From positions 620,001-684,000 of the forward strand of contig JAKCFJ010000003.1 in NCBI GenBank assembly GCA_025041175.1: a stretch of 64,000 nt of DNA. Reading direction: 5' to 3'. Source of the stretch: Halobacteriales archaeon YIM A00010 (GTDB taxonomy: Archaea > Halobacteriota > Halobacteria > Halobacteriales > Haloarculaceae). Of this stretch, positions 11,438-48,511 are shown one piece after another. Positions within the stretch are counted from its first letter, which is position 1; every line of letters begins with the position of its first letter. The translations under genes were made by a program, and so were the position numbers. The notes beneath the pieces are model-generated. The model was not told the origin of the DNA, did no database searches, and was given only the letters and a program-made list of their open reading frames with translations.

Positions 11438-11577
11438 CCTGATGTCGGGCAGGTAGCTCAGCAATGCACAATCCAGACTTCCTTCTATCTATCCTTCCAA
11501 CGATGAAAACTGAAGCCGGTTCATATCAGCTCGTCAGTTCGGAATTACTCGTCCATGGCGTGAAACTTACCTTGCCG
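11438..11577 (-). repeat. Dispersed imperfect repeat, copy 1 (inverted relative to copy 2)
   Basis: Read on the minus strand, this stretch aligns almost without gaps with 29718-29848 on the plus strand. Both begin with GTTTCACGCCAT and end with a strongly conserved block containing TGGATTGTGCATTGC, GAGCTACCT and CGACATCAG. The central part is diverged, and overall identity by eye is around 70 percent. Similarity stops just outside the blocks. It could be a transposon end or a degraded gene fragment. I cannot assign a family. Confidence 0.6.
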
Positions 11578-13680: not shown

Positions 13681-13686
13681 CGGTCA

Positions 13687-13846
13687 CCAAAACGCGGAGC
13701 GTTCTGGCGTGCGAACGAGACACTTCGCGTCTCGTGAACGTCACCGGAACTCGGAGAGTTCCGGTTGGCACGCAAGACCTTCGGTCTTGCGAACGTCCCC
13801 AGAAGCCTTCGGCTTCTGGTTGGCTCATCAGACCTCTGGTCTGATG
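13687..13846 (+). repeat. Tandem hairpin array A: six 9-3-9 hairpins
   Basis: Six consecutive palindromes, each with two 9-base arms around a 3-base loop, start at 13687, 13715, 13744, 13771, 13799 and 13826 (period 27-29). The arms differ (for example CCGGAACTC, CGCAAGACC, CCAGAAGCC, CATCAGACC), yet four hairpins pair perfectly and two have a single A-C mismatch. Loops are gga, ttc or tct. Linkers of 6-8 bases alternate between a GAACGTC-like and a TTGGC-like form. The right edge runs straight into a dead IS6-type transposase. See array B (45130-45240), which repeats part of this in inverted orientation. Confidence 0.85.
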
Positions 13847-14187
13847 AACGCTATCGACCCTGAAACGAACGAACGAATTACCCTATACAACGCTTACCGA
13901 TACGAAATACGTGATTGCGCAGAGATTCATTGCAGCACGTCGCGAAAACACGACATCCTCGATGCCGGGGCTCTCTTCGATGGTGCGAAATCACTCCACA
14001 GTACATGTCGACATCACGGTCTCGGTCCCTGATATGAACGCCATGGAAAGCAAAACAGTGTCGAATATATCTTTGATATAATAAAATGACGAACAACGTC
14101 GTTCTTGAACTGTTTCAGCAATGTCGACACAGAAACGGCTGACGTGGCTCAGATCATTCGCCGTCGTATGGAATCAGCGTTCTATTT
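13847..14187 (+). pseudogene. IS6-type (ISH14/15-like) transposase remnant, copy 1
   Basis: Translated fragments follow the C-terminal half of haloarchaeal IS6-type DDE transposases: AIDPETNER, a decayed DGAKSLHSTCRHHGL block (VDGAxxLxxACxRHGL in live copies), ERHGKQNSVEYIF and NCFSNVDTETAD, ending near a shifted FAVVWNQRSI. In-frame stops and at least one frameshift separate the pieces, and the N-terminal half is missing. It starts directly at the edge of hairpin array A. It cannot encode an active enzyme. Confidence 0.7.
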
Positions 14188-16954: not shown

Positions 16955-18790
16955 CTACTCATCGACTACTCCGACCTGAACGTTCCAGAGATCCGCGTAC
17001 GTCCCATTACGGTCCAAGAGCTCTTCGTGTGTTCCCTGCTCAATAATCTTGCCGCCATCGAGAACGACGATCCGGTCGGTGTTGCGGACAGTCGAGAGTC
17101 GATGGGCGACGATGAGCGTCGTTCGATCTGCGGTCACCTCATCGAGCGACCGCTGGATACGGGCCTCGGTCCAGTTATCCACGTGGCTCGTCGCCTCGTC
17201 GAACACAAACATCGGCGGATCCGCGAGGAGGACCCGAGCGATGGCAAGCCGTTGGCGCTGGCCACCCGACAGCTTCACACCACGTTCGCCTACCTGTGCG
17301 TCGTACCCACCATCCAACTGGCTGATAAACTCGTCTGCACCCGCCGCTTTCGCAGCCACGACGACGCTGTCATCGTCGGTCTCATCGACGCCGTACGCGA
17401 TGTTCTCACGAATCGTTCCAGTAAAGAGGAATGGATCCTGTGCAACGTAGCCGATCGAGCGTCGGAGCGATGCCGGTGAGAGGTCACATACATCAGCACC
17501 GTCGACACGAACCGCCCCCTCGTCCGGGTCGTAGAACGCGAACAAGAACTTGAGGAGCGTCGATTTCCCGGCTCCCGTGGAGCCGACGAATCCGACTGTC
17601 TCGCCCCGTTCGATCTCGAAGTTTATGTCACGAATCACCGGCTCGTCGGTGCCGGGGTAGCTGAACGAAACGTGATCGTACGTGATACGTCCTTCAGGAT
17701 TGTCTAAATCGGTTTTCTCCTCGTGTCGTGATGAGTCCATACGCTGGATGCCGAGGATTCGTTTGGCTGCCGACGTAGCCCCCTTGTACAGTCCTGTGAA
17801 CCATGCGACGAAACGAACCGGCCGGATGAGGTCCTGGGTGTAGTAAATGAACGGGATGAATTCACCAGCAGTAAGCGCCCCCGAAAAGACCCAAAACGCC
17901 CCGTTGATAACCCATTCGGTGCCGATGAACAGTGTGATGACGAACGCAACACCGGCGAGGAGGCGCATTGATGGTTGGTGGCGGACGCCAACGAGATGGG
18001 CGTGCCAGTTCGCCACCCGGTGCCTGTCGGACTGGCTGTCGACTCGCTGCGTCTCGTGGCGTTCGCCGCCGAAGGCTTTGACTACCTGAATACCGCTGAT
18101 GTTTGTCTCTAAGAGGGCATTCAACCGGCCTGTCTCTTCGCGGACATCGTCGTTTCGGATCTCGTGTCGATCCCCGAACCAGCTGTTGATCGCGAAGAGA
18201 ACTGGAGCGATTGCTAGTGAGACCAGCATGAGTTGCCAGTTCAACAGTGCCATGTAGACGAGCGAACTGACCAGTATCGTGCCCCCCGAGACTGCGAGAC
18301 TGGGTCCGAACTCCAAGAACTGTTCGAGCGCGTTCACGTCATTGTTGAGAACGCTCATCACGTCGCCCGTCTGGTGACGATCGAAAAAATCCATGTCGAG
18401 TCGTTGGACGGTGTCAAACGCGTCAACGCGGATCCGGTGGAGTATCCGCTGTGCGAAAAGGTAGAATGCCCACTCCGAGCAAATACCAAAGCCCAAATCG
18501 ACGAGTTTGATTCCGGTCAAGAGCGCGACGGTGAAGACGAGCTGCTGGGTCGGATCGGCCGGGATCCACCCGCTTGGAAGTAGTGGGATCGTGTACGCCT
18601 GATCGTTGAATATCGCATCAAACGCCAGCCCGATGACGAACATATCAATATTACTCAATGACTGGGCAACGAACGACGCAACGATGCCTACGCCGGCGTA
18701 TCTGAGGTCATTTCCCCCGTTCTTCCGGACGAGTGTGCGGAGTGGATGTTGCTCGTCGGCCGCAGCCACGATCCGATCACGGCCGCTCAT
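16955..18790 (-). CDS. ABC exporter half-transporter, second gene of a pair
   Basis: 611 residues: a six-segment ABC exporter membrane domain (about 20-330) fused to an ATPase domain. Walker A is GSTGAGKSTLLK, the signature is LSGGQRQRLAIARVLL, Walker B is MFVFDEATSHVD with the catalytic Glu, and the H-loop His is in IVAHRLSTVRN. Its ATG overlaps the stop of the preceding gene as ATGA, so it very likely forms a heterodimer with that protein. Multidrug or lipid export is the usual role of this subfamily; the cargo is unknown. About 240 bases without a gene separate it from the CDF gene. Confidence 0.93.
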   Translation of the reverse strand: MSGRDRIVAAADEQHPLRTLVRKNGGNDLRYAGVGIVASFVAQSLSNIDMFVIGLAFDAIFNDQAYTIPLLPSGWIPADPTQQLVFTVALLTGIKLVDLGFGICSEWAFYLFAQRILHRIRVDAFDTVQRLDMDFFDRHQTGDVMSVLNNDVNALEQFLEFGPSLAVSGGTILVSSLVYMALLNWQLMLVSLAIAPVLFAINSWFGDRHEIRNDDVREETGRLNALLETNISGIQVVKAFGGERHETQRVDSQSDRHRVANWHAHLVGVRHQPSMRLLAGVAFVITLFIGTEWVINGAFWVFSGALTAGEFIPFIYYTQDLIRPVRFVAWFTGLYKGATSAAKRILGIQRMDSSRHEEKTDLDNPEGRITYDHVSFSYPGTDEPVIRDINFEIERGETVGFVGSTGAGKSTLLKFLFAFYDPDEGAVRVDGADVCDLSPASLRRSIGYVAQDPFLFTGTIRENIAYGVDETDDDSVVVAAKAAGADEFISQLDGGYDAQVGERGVKLSGGQRQRLAIARVLLADPPMFVFDEATSHVDNWTEARIQRSLDEVTADRTTLIVAHRLSTVRNTDRIVVLDGGKIIEQGTHEELLDRNGTYADLWNVQVGVVDE

Positions 18791-20700
18791 CGAACCACCT
18801 CATCTGTCTCTCCATCTAACCCACTCCTGTTGCTGACAGTTGTGTCGAGAAACGAGTCCGAAACCGCATCCGTCTCGCCGACCTGTACCCGCCAGAGGTC
18901 GGCGTATGTCCCGCTGTCATCGAGGAGTTGCTCGTGCGTGCCACGTTCGACGATCTGCCCGTCCTCAACGACGATGATCTGGTCGGCGTTACGGACGGTC
19001 GAAAGCCGGTGAGCGATTACAACTATCGTCCGGTCACCGGCGAGCACGTCGATACTCCGTTGGATCTGCCGTTCGGTCTCGTTGTCGATGTGGCTCGTCG
19101 CCTCATCCAAGATGAGAATAGCAGGGTCTCGAAACAAAGCACGAGCGATGGCGATCCGCTGACGTTGCCCACCAGACAGACTCTCACCGCACTCGCCGAC
19201 CTGCGTGCTGTAGCCCGCGTCAAACTGTGTGATGAATTCGTGTGCGCCAGCGAGGGTTGCGGCCTCCTCTACGGCAGTTTGATCGGCATCGTCGACGCCG
19301 TACGCGATGTTCTCACGAATCGTTCCAGTAAAGAGGAATGGGTCTTGTGCAACGTAGCCAAGGTGTTCCCGAAGACTACGCTGTGACACCTCACAGATGT
19401 CAGTTCCATCGATCCTGATGGTTCCCTCGTCAGGGTCGTAGAACCGGAAGAGGAGCTTCGTGATTGTCGACTTGCCGGCTCCAGTGGGACCGACGATCCC
19501 GATGAGCGAGCCCGGTTCGGCCGTGAAATCCACTCGGGATACCGTTTGTTCGTCGGCACCGGTGTAACTGAACGAGACGGTATCGTACGTGATTTTTCCT
19601 GCATTGCCCTGCAAATCATGCCCAGCAGCGGGATCGGGGCAATCACCTTCGAGGACAGCGACGATGCGTTTGCTTGATGCCAGCGCGTTTTCGTAGCTGT
19701 CGAGCACGTCAAGCATGAGCTGTCGGACTGGTTGGTAGAACGACTTGGTGTACAGCAGGAAGGTGAGTAGTGTCCCGGCCGTCAGTGCGTCACCCAGCAG
19801 TGCCGGAGCGCCGTTGAGAGCCATGTATGTGCCGAGGGCGAACACCCCGATGAAAGCGAGCGACGAAACCGTCCAACTGCTGAGATCGAACGCAAGCCGG
19901 AGCCGAATGGCCGACCACTTTCGATCGCGGTAGTCCTTCGACACCGCTTCGACGGCCGCACGCTCGTCGTTCTCGCGAGCAAAGCTCTTGACTGTCGCAA
20001 TACCGTCGATACTGTTCTCGAGTCGGGAATTCACCTGACCGACGCTTTCGCGGACCTCCTCGTAGATTGGTTCGACGCGGGTCGTGTACCATCGACTCAA
20101 AAGCGCCAGCGCGACCGGCATGAGTAAGAGTAGTGTCGCAAGTCGGGGGTGGAGCGTCAGCATAAACGCGAAGGCGACGAGGAGCTGGGAGAGAAAGCCC
20201 AGCCCTCGAAAGGCGTTCTCGCTAAACTGGGTGAGGTTACTAACGTCGTTGTTGAGGACGCTCATCACGTCGCCAGTTTGTCGGTCGTCGAAAAACCGCA
20301 GCTGGTGAGTGACAAGCGCATCAAACGTATCGACGCGGATATCGTGTAGCGTCCAGTAGCGAGCGGTCCCACTGATCCACCCGGCGGCCCAGTTCAGCCC
20401 AGTATCGAGGAGATACGCCGCGACGAGCAGCCCAACAGTGAACAGAACCTGCGTTTCGGTAGTGGTCGGGAGCAGACCATCCGGAACGAGAGGAAGCGTG
20501 TACGGGATTTCGGCGAAGAGGATCGCATCAAGCGCAACGCCGACAACCAGTGCCGGTACGCGCTGTGGAACCTGCGCGAGGAACATTCCGATAGCGGCGA
20601 GACCATAGCGGAGCGTGTAGGAGCGAGCATACTGGTCGATTAGATGCTGGAGGGGATTTCCGATTTCATTCGGAACCGGAAAATCAGACGGTTTACTCAT
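18787..20700 (-). CDS. ABC exporter half-transporter, first gene of a pair
   Basis: 637 residues from the ATG at 20700 (MSKPSDFPVP). An in-frame ATG at 20715 would add five residues. An N-terminal exporter membrane domain with six segments is followed by an ATPase domain: Walker A GPTGAGKSTITK, signature LSGGQRQRIAIARALF, Walker B ILILDEATSHID and H-loop IAHRLSTVRN. Both ATPase sites of the pair look intact (Glu after Walker B in each), unlike heterodimeric exporters with one degenerate site. A TATA-like GTTATAAAC lies near 20757-20766. Co-translation with the next gene is suggested by the ATGA overlap. Confidence 0.93.
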   Translation of the reverse strand: MSKPSDFPVPNEIGNPLQHLIDQYARSYTLRYGLAAIGMFLAQVPQRVPALVVGVALDAILFAEIPYTLPLVPDGLLPTTTETQVLFTVGLLVAAYLLDTGLNWAAGWISGTARYWTLHDIRVDTFDALVTHQLRFFDDRQTGDVMSVLNNDVSNLTQFSENAFRGLGFLSQLLVAFAFMLTLHPRLATLLLLMPVALALLSRWYTTRVEPIYEEVRESVGQVNSRLENSIDGIATVKSFARENDERAAVEAVSKDYRDRKWSAIRLRLAFDLSSWTVSSLAFIGVFALGTYMALNGAPALLGDALTAGTLLTFLLYTKSFYQPVRQLMLDVLDSYENALASSKRIVAVLEGDCPDPAAGHDLQGNAGKITYDTVSFSYTGADEQTVSRVDFTAEPGSLIGIVGPTGAGKSTITKLLFRFYDPDEGTIRIDGTDICEVSQRSLREHLGYVAQDPFLFTGTIRENIAYGVDDADQTAVEEAATLAGAHEFITQFDAGYSTQVGECGESLSGGQRQRIAIARALFRDPAILILDEATSHIDNETERQIQRSIDVLAGDRTIVVIAHRLSTVRNADQIIVVEDGQIVERGTHEQLLDDSGTYADLWRVQVGETDAVSDSFLDTTVSNRSGLDGETDEVVR

Positions 20701-29717: not shown

Positions 29718-29848
29718 TTGTTTCACGCCATATTAGCACAATCACGAAGTGACGAGTTGATATGGGACGGCGTCAGCTTTCACTGTTCAGAATATGACTG
29801 GAAAGAACTCCTGGATTGTGCATTGCAGAGCTACCTAGCCGACATCAG
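29718..29848 (+). repeat. Dispersed imperfect repeat, copy 2
   Basis: Aligns with the minus strand of 11438-11577 from GTTTCACGCCAT to CGACATCAG, with the strongest match in the last 40 bases. It lies 60 bases after the dead transposase and some 220 bases from the end of tnpB, so it may be the terminus of one of these elements. Confidence 0.6.
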
Positions 29849-44209: not shown

Positions 44210-44733
44210 CTATGCCCGAAAGCGACCCCGTAACGGATGTTTGGACGACATCGACGTGGATGTTGTGAAGCGAGAAACAACGATACGACTGTTCATAAAT
44301 CTCGATATTCAGCGTCATCTCGCAAAATTATCTTTTTCAAATACTATTATTATTCTCGAGGTATTCAATGCTAAACAGGCCTGTTCGACTGTTCACATGG
44401 TTCACACGACCGATCTACAGCCTGGAATGATCGCAGCCCGGATCACGTTGCGGTCGATAAGACCGTGATCCACCTCGACAACGAACGCGTGAGGAACACA
44501 ATGTCGATGAGGCTGTTTTTCTTGTCGATGGAGCAACACTGCCCCACGATGCCTGCGCCCGACACGGTCTCGATTTCGGATAGGAACGCCACGGAGACTG
44601 GAACAGCGTAAAATATATTTTTTATTAGATATATGGGGTAATACCTGCTTTCAAACTATTTCAGCAACACCAATTCGAAAACTGCTAACGAGTTGTTTGG
44701 ATCGGCGTCGTCACACGGAATCGGCGTATCTGA
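44210..44733 (+). pseudogene. IS6-type transposase remnant, copy 2
   Basis: Starts with an ATG (MPESDPVTD) and continues after a frameshift as DIDVDVVKRETTIRLF, IQRHLAKLSFSNTIIILEVF and STVHMVHTTDLQPG, the N-terminal helix-turn-helix region of haloarchaeal IS6-type transposases. The DDE core is mostly deleted. Pieces resembling SPDHVAVDKTVI, FLVDGAT and CARHGLDFG follow in other frames, then SNTNSKTANELF near the end. Several stops make it dead. Confidence 0.7.
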
Positions 44734-44741
44734 ACTACCCC

Positions 44742-44915: not shown

Positions 44916-45129
44916 GATGCGCGATCACGGAGGGTCCATCGTACGAGTGCGATAAGCGTCTGTCTCGTACTATTCCACTCGTTCTGTGTCACTGGTGTAG
45001 CTGTGGGGTACCGGCATGCAACACGCATTCACTTCCGACATCACTGGGTATTCACAGATGGAGTTATGGGAGCTGCTCAACGTCCCTGGGAAGGGTGTGG
45101 TTGGCGGCCGAATCGCAGGTTCTGGGGGC

Positions 45130-45240
45130 GTTTATCAGATCACCGTCTGATGAGCCAACCAGAAATCTTCGATTTCTGGTGACGTTCACGAGACGCGAAG
45201 TGTCTCGTTCGCACGCCAGAACGCTCCGCGTTTTGGTGAC
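45130..45240 (-). repeat. Tandem hairpin array B: four hairpins, inverted partial copy of array A
   Basis: Three clean 9-3-9 hairpins start at 45159, 45188 and 45216, and a weaker one starts near 45134. Read on the minus strand, positions 45240 back to about 45179 match array A base for base over some 60 bases through its first two hairpins. Then two units are missing and the third hairpin has a different but still perfectly paired stem (CCAGAAATC/GATTTCTGG). The array lies 80 bases upstream of the orc1/cdc6 start. Confidence 0.85.
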
Positions 45241-45287: not shown

Positions 45288-45321
45288 TAAGGAAGTGGCC
45301 GACAAACCATTACATCAGACA

Positions 45322-46323
45322 ATGATTCGTGATGCTCGCGTTCTGCACGCCCAGTTCGTCCCGGACGAACTAGAGCACCGGAACGCCGAGATCAACACGC
45401 TCTCGAACACGCTCAAACCGATCATGGACGGTCACTCGGGCAATCCGTCGCTCCTCCTTGGGCCGTCCGGCGCGGGCAAAACGTGTATCGCCCGATTTAC
45501 CGTCGAACGATTGCGAGAGAACGTTCTCGATATCAATACGCAGTATATCAACTGTTGGCAAGATTACGCGCGGTTTCAGGTCCTCTACCGTCTCCTCGAG
45601 ACGATCGGCACCACGGTCGATATCCATCGTCGTTCGACACCGACCGATGAACTCCTCGACCGGCTCCGCCAGTACGATGGGCCTCCATTCGTCGTCATTC
45701 TCGATGAAGTGGACCAACTCGAAGACAATGGCGTCCTCTATGATCTCTACCAACTTCCACAGATCACAATGATTCTCATCACGAACCGTGAGCGGGACCT
45801 CTTTACCCAGCTCGATGACCGACTGACGAGTCGCTTACACCCCAGTGTGCGCATCTCGTTCGAGAAATACCATCTCGATGAACTCGTTTCGATTCTCGCC
45901 GCGCGCGCCCGGTGGGGACTCGTGGACGATGTCATCGAATCGGCCGAATTCGAGTTGATCGCCGACGCAGCGGCGGGTGACGCGCGGATTGCCATCGGGA
46001 TTCTCAGACACGCCGCCCGACTCGCAGAGCAAACCGACACCCAACGGATCACGACCGACGTCGTTCAGCAGGCCATTCCGGAGGGACGCCAGGACGTCCG
46101 CCAGAAAACCATCGAGCAACTCACCACACACCAGCGGGTGCTCTATGACATCGTCCACGAGCATGGAGAGCTCGACCCCAGTACGCTCTATGCGGCCTAC
46201 CGTGACCGCGTCGATGAGCCCAAGACGAACCGGACCGTGCGAAACTATCTCGCAAAAATGGAGCACTATCGCCTAATTCACGCCGAGGGCGATAACCGCG
46301 CTCGGACGTACCGCCCACGGTAG
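45322..46323 (+). CDS. Orc1/Cdc6-family replication initiator
   Basis: 333 residues from the ATG at 45322 (MIRDARVLHAQFVPDEL), the usual N-terminus of haloarchaeal Orc1/Cdc6. AAA+ motifs: Walker A LLLGPSGAGKTCIARF (about residue 48), Walker B VVILDEVDQLED (about 125), sensor 1 ITMILITNRERD and sensor 2 region GDARIAIGILRHAARLA. A C-terminal winged helix (about 255-333) ends the protein. It is shorter than core Orc1 proteins (about 400), as is common for the accessory paralogues found near mobile DNA. Whether an origin lies nearby is uncertain. Confidence 0.9.
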   Translation: MIRDARVLHAQFVPDELEHRNAEINTLSNTLKPIMDGHSGNPSLLLGPSGAGKTCIARFTVERLRENVLDINTQYINCWQDYARFQVLYRLLETIGTTVDIHRRSTPTDELLDRLRQYDGPPFVVILDEVDQLEDNGVLYDLYQLPQITMILITNRERDLFTQLDDRLTSRLHPSVRISFEKYHLDELVSILAARARWGLVDDVIESAEFELIADAAAGDARIAIGILRHAARLAEQTDTQRITTDVVQQAIPEGRQDVRQKTIEQLTTHQRVLYDIVHEHGELDPSTLYAAYRDRVDEPKTNRTVRNYLAKMEHYRLIHAEGDNRARTYRPR

Positions 46324-46693: not shown

Positions 46694-47247
46694 GTTCGCC
46701 GGGGATCGCCCCGCCAACGTTCCTCGCCCCCCGATGGCAGCCAATCGATGGTGACCGATGAGCAGTATCGGGAGGCAGCGGGTGGGGATATTGGCTCGGA
46801 CAAAGTACCTACTCGGGCGAACAGGCTGTTAGAGTTGCCATCTGGGGCATTATCGGGGGAATTATAGAGAGTAAAGGAGAATACCGGTCCTTTAGGGGCC
46901 GGCTGAATCCGACAGACTGGATCGGTTCCACCATTCGTCTCCTGTTTGGTTTCCAGTGCTGAGGCTTAAGTACCAAGCCGACACAGATGGATACAGGAAA
47001 CCCGTGGAAGCAAGCGGATTCCATGGCTCCAACGGAGGCGGCCCGTCCGCCCCAAGCAATGAGACAATCTCCGGAACCAGGTCGGTGAACGTTCGATTCC
47101 TACAATGAATCGAGGCGGTGCCGACTGTAGCAACCACGACAAGACAAGTAACTCCGAGTCTGCTGAGGCCTGCTGGTGTCCCACTGGCTAAAATAACAGT
47201 AGGACATCATACACGGTGGAGGATAGGAGTACCGGGGGCTTGGCATC
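46694..47247 (+). other. Degraded DNA with a possible coding scrap
   Basis: No intact gene. A plus-strand frame at about 46776-46962 reads GWGYWLGQSTYSGEQAVRV and IWGIIGGIIESKGEYRSF and ends at TGA after FGFQC; it looks like real protein sequence but lacks a start. The rest has no feature I can name. Confidence 0.35.
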
Positions 47248-47298
47248 TCGAAAATCGAAGATTTTCGATGACTCGTCAAAAACGCCCTGCGTTTTTGA
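47248..47298 (+). repeat. Tandem hairpin array C: two hairpins
   Basis: TCGAAAATC-gaa-GATTTTCGA at 47248-47268 and a 10-3-10 hairpin (arms TCAAAAACGC and GCGTTTTTGA) at 47276-47298. Arm length, 3-base loop and period (28-29) match arrays A and B, but the sequences differ. Confidence 0.7.
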
Positions 47299-47414
47299 GA
47301 CTCCCAGCAGTCCCACTCGCTCTAGATCATGAGCATCCCACCGGATTCGTACCGATCGGCTGCTCGGTGGTACTGCAAACCTGAAACTCCCACCGCTTGG
47401 GATTCCACGTCGTC

Positions 47415-47453
47415 GTCGGGCTTTGCCCGACTGCCTGAGGGACGTAGTCCCTC
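47415..47453 (+). repeat. Paired short hairpins
   Basis: GTCGGGC-ttt-GCCCGAC at 47415-47431 and GAGGGAC-gta-GTCCCTC at 47437-47453, two 7-3-7 hairpins 22 bases apart. A CCCACCGCTTGGGATTCC stretch just before (about 47389-47406) resembles the end of haloarchaeal tnpB elements. Confidence 0.6.
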
Positions 47454-47479
47454 TCTGTTTACGACGTGGAGGATGTCAA

Positions 47480-47912
47480 AGCTCACCCAGTAGCGGTTTC
47501 AGGTAGTCGTACGGCGGTGGTTATCATTCCGAGTAGTGTGACAGAAGATACTGCTATTGGGTTCATACTTGGAATATACGCGACCTGGAGCGATCGTAAA
47601 CCCCAAAAAAAGTTCGTAGAGCCGATCGTCGCGGCTACCGATCGAATCGATCTCGTAGAGGTCGATGAGCACAGTTCCGCTGAATGCCGCAAATCCACTG
47701 TATAATTTCTTAAAGACGGTTTATTGACGAGCTCAACGGCGACCAGATAGGAGGAGTTTAGTGATTTGCAGTTGAGCGAGATAACGGAGTGATCAACGTC
47801 GTCGTACTCTTTGATGTCCTATAGCAGGTCAAGGAGGTACTCCGTGACGACGGTTTTTCCGGCATCAGGGTGTCCATAGACGAATATATCGTTCGTTCCT
47901 CTTCCAGTAGCG
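47480..47912 (-). pseudogene. orc1/cdc6 remnant
   Basis: Minus-strand pieces match an Orc1/Cdc6 AAA+ core: NDIFVYGHPDAGKTVVTEYLL (Walker A, here split from the rest by a stop), LNCKSLNSSYLVAVELVN, and after a frameshift TVLIDLYEIDSIGSRDDRLYEL (Walker B region). N- and C-terminal parts are missing. The left edge is close to a dead tnpB-like end and the right edge meets an IS6 remnant. It is a second, broken initiator gene 1.2 kb from the intact one. Confidence 0.7.
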
Positions 47913-47914
47913 TT

Positions 47915-48511
47915 CAGATACGCCGATTCCACGCGACGACGAATAATCGAAACAACTCGTTAGCAGTTTTCGCATTGGCGTTACTGAAATAGTTTGAAAA
48001 CGAATGATTCAACTATCTCATTCTATAAACGATATATTCGATGCTGTTTCGATGGCCGCGATGTTCGGATCTGCCATCGCGGCCGTGTCGGGCGCAGGCT
48101 TGGAGCGGTGTCGCTCCATCGACGAGACACACGGCCTCGGCGACACCGTGTTTTGCACGACGCTCGCCGATGTGAAGAACGATCGTTCTCGTCGGTTCGA
48201 GGTGTATGCAGCAAATCGTTTGGTTTGGATCGACAGCTGCGAGCAACGAGCGTTCGTCACCGGGGTGGAGCACGGCCTCATCGACCGCAATGATCCGGGC
48301 TGGGACCAGCCGTATGAACCCAGTTGCGAACGGGCGAACGCATCCGTTCAGCACCGAATACCCCAATAACACTGGTAACATCTAAAAGAAATAATTCATC
48401 AAAATGGGGTTACATACCAAGCTTTATAAACGGTTTCAGTGTTGCTTTTCGCTTCACGGACTCCACATCAATGTCGTTCAAACGTCCGTCGAGGCGAGCA
48501 TTTTTCGGCAT
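47915..48511 (-). pseudogene. IS6-type transposase remnant, copy 3
   Basis: Begins at the ATG of 48511 with MPKNARLDGRLNDIDVESVK, then stops. The middle is the best preserved of the three copies: LVPARIIAVDEAV, CIHLEPTRTIVLHIGERRAKHGVAEAVC, LVDGATPLQACARHG and HRNSIEYIV, and the end reads SNANAKTANELFRLFVVAW. A block in the catalytic core and the part between the helix-turn-helix and the first catalytic Asp are missing. It is inactive. Confidence 0.75.

What the first reader, a model, noticed from the sequence alone, without database searches (positions are those of the whole stretch)
45130..45240. Second hairpin array, inverted, sharing some 60 identical bases with the first
Minus-strand array B equals array A exactly through the first two hairpins, then lacks two units and has a new stem in the third. 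The copies lie 31 kb apart in opposite orientation. Gain or loss of whole hairpin units plus stem replacement suggests a copying mechanism that works hairpin by hairpin. Array B sits just upstream of an intact orc1/cdc6 gene and A abuts an IS6 remnant.
Basis: seen in the sequence. Interest (0 to 1): 0.68.

Follow-up and report, generated by a model that had tools for sequence, protein, structure and literature searches.

The report
Haloarchaeal double-hairpin jumping DNA units
The two hairpin arrays are made of tiny 55-base DNA units, each folding into two hairpins, that have been copied as whole units into the same kind of short target site throughout salt-loving archaea, most often into the ends of another jumping gene.

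Summary
Array A (13684-13850, +) and B (45129-45239, -) share exactly 63 bases, including two private stem mismatches; B then lacks one unit (two hairpins) and has a new third stem. The repeating unit is a PAIR of hairpins, 53-57 nt: TC-[hairpin 1]-linker-[hairpin 2]-AACG. Filled and empty sites in the same genome and in other genera show clean insertion of whole units just after a dinucleotide, usually CG; the unit ends in CG and so recreates its target, which accounts for head-to-tail arrays. A congener has a tandem array of period exactly 55. An exact-pattern scan of named genomes gave 110 places, all haloarchaea; the dinucleotide left of the unit is CG in 109 of 110. About two thirds lie in or beside IS605-transposon ends. 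Hairpin tips are closed by C-G in 176 of 176 and loops are GNA/TNC in 111 of 176, against 53 and 23 of 134 solitary hairpins: the signature of very stable DNA mini-hairpins. Best reading: a non-autonomous element moved as folded single-stranded DNA, enzyme unknown. Closest known: Haloquadratum PATE/SMR-A repeats and CGTC-tagged REPs.

The parts
13684..13740 (+). Array A, unit 1 (57 nt); identical to unit 1 of B, with one A.C mismatch in each stem
13741..13795 (+). Array A, unit 2 (55 nt); absent from B
13796..13850 (+). Array A, unit 3 (55 nt); last hairpin TCATCAGAC..GTCTGATGA shared with IS6 paralogues L028, L033, L041
13540..14170 (+). IS6/IS240-type transposase remnant that holds array A (limits approximate); empty copies L062, L052
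45183..45239 (-). Array B, unit 1 (57 nt), identical to A unit 1
45129..45182 (-). Array B, unit 2 (54 nt), first stem AAATC in place of A's; right flank CCCCCAGAACC
45295..46323 (+). orc1/cdc6-type AAA+ gene; B lies just upstream on the other strand
47244..47300 (-). related hairpin pair of another linker type (left AG, right ATG|CCAAGCCCCCGGTACTCC, same target as L070)
47403..47465 (+). related hairpin pair, linker type c (GTC[..]TGCCT[GAG..CTC]TCTG)

Best explanation
A and B are tandem arrays of a miniature non-autonomous mobile element. The element is 53-57 nt: 5'-TC-[hairpin 1]-linker-[hairpin 2]-AACG-3'. It is inserted immediately 3' of a short target ending in a pyrimidine-purine step, nearly always CG, and itself ends in CG, so each insertion recreates a target at its right end and further units can add head to tail. 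SHOWN: discrete unit, its boundaries, clean insertion, target preference, preferred landing in or beside IS605 ends, unit-wise tandem growth, conserved tips of the hairpins. INFERRED: the moving form is single-stranded DNA folded into two very stable C-(GNA)-G mini-hairpins, handled by an enzyme supplied in trans, most plausibly a Y1/HUH (TnpA- or RAYT-like) transposase acting on ssDNA; array length then also changes by slippage or unequal crossing over between units, and stems and loops change by template switching or hairpin flipping. Likelihood by step: inserted mobile unit about 0.9; ssDNA hairpin intermediate about 0.55; Y1-type enzyme about 0.35.
For: Filled against empty sites in one genome: L030 against L045/L084, L070 against L044, L084 against L045; in L013 and L026 the unit splits TnpB codons, GACTACAACG|unit|CCGCGAAG (the uninterrupted form there is inferred). 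Across genera GGGGATACAGCG|unit|CCGCACAG (L185) against GGGGATACAGCG|CCGCACAG (L145; also L121, L154, L045 with nearly the same sequence). Left dinucleotide CG in 109 of 110 a1 units (G is forced by the pattern, C is not); right CG in 97 of the 102 whose right arm parsed, 8 of 110 not parsed. Tandem array with period 55, 3.9 copies, 99% match (L116). A unit 1 = B unit 1 with unrelated flanks. Tip closure C-G 176 of 176, loops GNA/TNC 111 of 176 in a1 units; 54 and 37 of 55 in clustered hairpins of unselected own-genome DNA; 53 and 23 of 134 solitary hairpins. d(GCGAAGC) and GNA-loop mini-hairpins are described as extraordinarily stable and nuclease resistant (PMC4686876, passages). Stem pairing 955 of 972 cells, both-side changes 51, against shuffle maxima 914 and 30. 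Y1 transposase genes in 32 of 47 unit-bearing and 18 of 50 other genomes, Fisher p 0.002.
Against: No enzyme is identified. The 4 Y1 genes of the own genome lie at loci whose detected hairpins do not resemble the A/B units, apart from units inserted in L095 and L097; 15 of 47 unit-bearing genomes show no Y1 hit; the Y1 association may only reflect that IS605 ends are the landing sites. IS6 hosts carry AG, GG or TG on the left and CG on the right, and L209 has TG/CG. L143 and L207 hold units in both orientations at one site, unlike strand-specific ssDNA insertion. No present-day transposition is seen. Shared descent of stems inflates the tip and pairing statistics.
Confidence: 0.55

Rival explanations
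1. A double-stranded miniature transposon (MITE-like) of a DDE or serine-type recombinase: short inverted ends and a 2-bp pyrimidine-purine duplication (CG, TG/CA, TA).
For: Linker type b has near-symmetric ends TCRCCAGAA..TTCTGGTGA. CG is self-complementary and both orientations occur at one site.
Against: L209 and IS6 hosts have different left and right dinucleotides. No parent element with the same ends was found in the DNA held. The 253 count both strands of symmetric units, and relatedness inflates agreement.
Confidence: 0.25
2. No transposition: hairpins arise and spread by replication slippage, template switching and gene conversion between resident repeats, carried around by the IS elements that host them.
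For: Arrays in IS6 paralogues share site and differ in length; L041 holds a hybrid hairpin with arms of two different stems; near-identical tandem array.
Against: Clean empty/filled sites in unrelated hosts (TnpB genes, IS605 palindromes, upstream of tnpA, IS6) and an almost invariant target step.
Confidence: 0.15
3. RNA elements (terminators, processing or stability hairpins) kept for function in transcripts.
For: Class ii units lie 5' of tnpA/tnpB, mostly sense (23 of the 30 units within 600 b of a transposase hit, 80 units examined); stems are conserved.
Against: Tri-loops with C-G closure in either complementary form fit DNA mini-hairpins; many units interrupt genes (L013, IS6 copies); no Rfam family at gathering score in the window.
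Confidence: 0.05

Closest known systems
SMR-A small mobile repeats of Haloquadratum walsbyi (PMC3119063)
   Same: Haloarchaeal, tiny, non-coding, no classical target duplication, land in near-terminal palindromes of IS605/PATE elements, mobilisation called enigmatic
   Different: SMR-A are about 110 bp with prominent inverted terminal repeats and high identity; units here are 53-57 nt, two hairpins with changing stems, and form arrays. Sequences were not compared
PATEs, including 52-bp terminal-only copies (PMC3119063)
   Same: Short, palindromic, related to IS605 biology
   Different: PATE palindromes are IS605 ends; the unit here is inserted inside or beside such ends and does not resemble the hairpins of the intact tnpA/tnpB element L094 of this genome
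CGTC-tagged REPs (PMC3733652; Neisseria dRS3, Rickettsia RPE-4/6)
   Same: CGTC, sometimes TGTC, at the foot of an 8-9 bp hairpin; dimers; intragenic copies; no dedicated transposase known
   Different: Reported there in bacteria, loops 4-5, A/T pairs at the stem base; here loops 3, CC/GG base, direct asymmetric pairs, and a CG is seen to be present in the empty target
Mitochondrial double-hairpin elements / RHE (PMC2800124)
   Same: Double hairpins thought mobile, stems kept and loops free, tandem copies
   Different: Organellar; no common sequence or target shown

Membership tests
IS200/IS605 (PATE, terminal-only) | End hairpins match those of a tnpA-bearing element | tested here: not met
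   Own-genome tnpA loci L094-L097: detected hairpins differ from the A/B units except where units are inserted; in L098 the unit interrupts the IS605 palindrome
IS200/IS605 (PATE, terminal-only) | Insertion 3' of a short target without duplication | tested here: inconclusive
   CG on both sides; dinucleotides differ in some copies and agree in others
SMR-A | Insertion into IS605/PATE near-terminal palindromes | tested here: met
   Class i 25 and class iii 4 of 110; class ii (42 of 110) lies beside the IS605 end (the classes are regex rules of mine)
SMR-A | About 110 bp with inverted terminal repeats | tested here: not met
   Units 53-57 nt
CGTC-tagged REP | CGTC or TGTC at the hairpin foot, 8-9 bp stem | tested here: met
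CGTC-tagged REP | Loop 4-5 and A/T pairs at first two stem positions | tested here: not met
   Loop mostly 3, stem base CC/GG
GTAG REP / REPIN | GTAG tag at the hairpin foot, RAYT gene in the genome | tested here: not met
   Tag is CGTC/TGTC; Y1 genes found, RAYT type not resolved
Mitochondrial double-hairpin element | Two-hairpin inserted unit | tested here: met
   Architecture only; homology not tested

The most novel reading that the evidence does not exclude
A haloarchaea-wide class of mobile DNA whose only content is two extraordinarily stable DNA mini-hairpins: it travels as a folded, nuclease-resistant 55-nt single strand, lands after a CG step (preferably inside or beside hairpins of IS605 elements), recreates its own target and so builds arrays, using an enzyme not yet known. 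CGTC-tagged REPs of bacteria would be the same class, with the CG matched to the target.
Probability: 0.3. Interest if true: 0.82.

Novelty: new variant of a known kind. Interest (0 to 1): 0.6.

Why it matters
Small palindromic repeats in archaea (SMR) and bacteria (CGTC-REP) have long lacked a mobilisation mechanism. The sharp unit limits, the target rule and the mini-hairpin signature here turn that open question into direct tests, and explain how hairpin arrays grow.

Tried and rejected
Exact pattern with linker TTGGC (the A/B form) found nothing in genome contigs; the TGTGCGA form then found 110, none in viral contigs. A search for a parent element with one hairpin at each end gave 22 candidates, which I judged by eye to be chance pairs. 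The IS605-end idea (unit = LE or RE) was dropped after L098. The palindrome-spanning test on joined flanks of 69 sites was weak: 18 against a permuted mean of 7.4 at stem 6 or more, but 22 against 16.7 (maximum 23) at 5 or more. Distance to transposase genes: 27 of 80 within 300 b against 9% of random points; within 100 b it was 4 of 80 against 7%, no excess. The regex count of neighbouring units found direct pairs only (8 own, 4 relatives) and missed the inverted pairs seen by eye; it also missed unit 1 of A and of B. A hammerhead-like reading of GTC/CTGATGA was considered from memory and dropped: Rfam gave no hit in the window. Literature: (search listings) found no description of these units beyond the SMR/PATE account; the library holds open-licence papers only.

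Full report
Observation. The window lies in contig C3 of a 5.97-Mb haloarchaeal genome. A and B share 63 identical bases in opposite orientation, inside a 96-nt match of 91%. Nothing else in the window repeats in inverted form at 30 identical bases. Both fold beyond shuffled controls. The two stems of the shared unit each carry an A.C mismatch, the same in A and B, so the unit was copied; it did not arise twice.

Family in the genome. B as a query gives 54 matches at about 39 places on contigs C1-C4. In 864 kb taken without regard to the repeats (20 stretches of C3 plus the window, 20 stretches of C1), 18 clusters of two or more perfect hairpins occur, none in one dinucleotide shuffle of each stretch. 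Clusters come in several linker types; A and B have linkers TTGGC/TGGCA or CGTGCGA inside the pair and GAACG between pairs; others have TGCTA and GATG (type b) or TGCCC/TGCTT and TCTG (type c). Type c and the long array of L029 do not keep strict pairs.

The unit. Filled and empty sites give its limits. In L030 the unit stands after AGCG where related TnpB genes read AACG without it; in L070 after AGTG where L044 reads AGTGCC; in L084 after GGTG where L045 has none; in the relatives, L088 against L090 differ by exactly one unit. In L013 and L026 the unit splits the TnpB codons for DYN-AAKN; that TnpB also has a frameshift elsewhere. Between genera, GGGGATACAGCG|CCGCAC is empty in L121 and L145 and filled in L185 and many others. 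IS6/IS240 transposase copies L052 and L062 are empty at the place of array A, while A, L028, L033, L034, L036, L041 and L029 carry arrays of different length there. L028 has one unit and L033 four, in near-identical flanks. In the congener G004 a 55-bp unit is repeated 3.9 times at 99%. So the pair of hairpins is the unit of insertion and of array growth.

Spread. Array A as a query matches 47 of 97 genomes of the order, own genome included, at E 0.001 or less. The pattern GTCCCCAGAA..TTCTGGTGTGCGAACGAGA matches 110 places in genome contigs; all 110 record titles are haloarchaea, among them Halorubrum, Natrialba, Halobacterium, Haloferax and Haloquadratum. The base before the forced G is C in 109 of 110. 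By simple rules, 42 of 110 lie at GGGGATACAGCG upstream of tnpA/tnpB, 25 in the palindrome CCCG|CCGTGAACGGCGGG, 4 in CCTGCGCC..GGCG|CAGG, 4 beside another unit, 35 elsewhere; some of the 35 are also palindromes (L166, L175, L225) or a recurrent site GGGCG|TCGCCGTC (L131, L220; L212 and L222 with TTGCCGTC). L098 carries intact tnpA and tnpB (Y1_Tnp 7e-41; Cas12f1-like TNB 6e-19) with the unit in its end palindrome.

Tips of the hairpins. In a1 units 176 of 176 perfect hairpins (stem 6 or more, loop 3) close with C-G and 111 have a GNA loop or its complement TNC; in clustered hairpins of the unselected own-genome DNA 54 and 37 of 55; in solitary hairpins of the same DNA 53 and 23 of 134. GAA/TTC and GGA/TCC dominate and both complementary forms are common. 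GNA-loop DNA mini-hairpins are described as extraordinarily stable (PMC4686876, passages). I take this as a sign that the folded form that matters is DNA. Related stems are not independent, so the figures overstate significance. Stem positions that vary do so in compensation, but mainly between two words, AAATC and AACGC.

Mechanism. See best explanation. What speaks for ssDNA is the tip signature and the taste for palindromes; what speaks against a plain IS200/605 reaction is the lack of matching hairpins in the own tnpA elements, genomes with units and no Y1 hit (15 of 47), and opposite orientations at one site. Whether the dinucleotide is duplicated or carried by the unit is undecided: agreeing changes (L009, L056, L084) and disagreeing ones (L209; IS6 hosts) both occur.

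Known relatives. Haloquadratum SMR-A and PATE (PMC3119063, passages), CGTC-tagged REPs (PMC3733652, section 6 and passages), mitochondrial RHE (PMC2800124, passages). None matches in all defining features, see Membership tests. The open-licence library showed no account of these units (search listings).

Noticed in passing
window 44542-44735 and 47912-48108: Inverted repeats (71-93% alike) resembling an IS6-type 3' end flank a 3.2-kb stretch holding array B and orc1/cdc6
   Followed up: partly
window 47236-47465: Two further hairpin pairs of other linker types; the first ends at the same target (CCAAGCCCCCGGTACTCC) as the array in L070
   Followed up: partly
L143, L207, L136: Two units in opposite orientation inserted at one IS605-upstream site (in L136 the first is decayed)
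   Followed up: partly
L041:3958-4208: A hairpin whose two arms come from different stem words (GACC / GCTC), as if joined at the tip
   Followed up: no
L128 and L097: Same spot of the IS6 transposase gene (before CTGTGTTTCTCGT) hit in Halobacterium sp. KA-4 and in this genome
   Followed up: no
window 17376-20295: Direct repeats 1907 bp apart (77 nt at 94%, 53 nt at 81%) within two adjacent long ORFs of 611 and 642 aa, a likely tandem gene duplication
   Followed up: no
window 11439-11476 and 29811-29848: 38-nt inverted repeat, 92%, similar to sequence after an IS6 copy in L029
   Followed up: no
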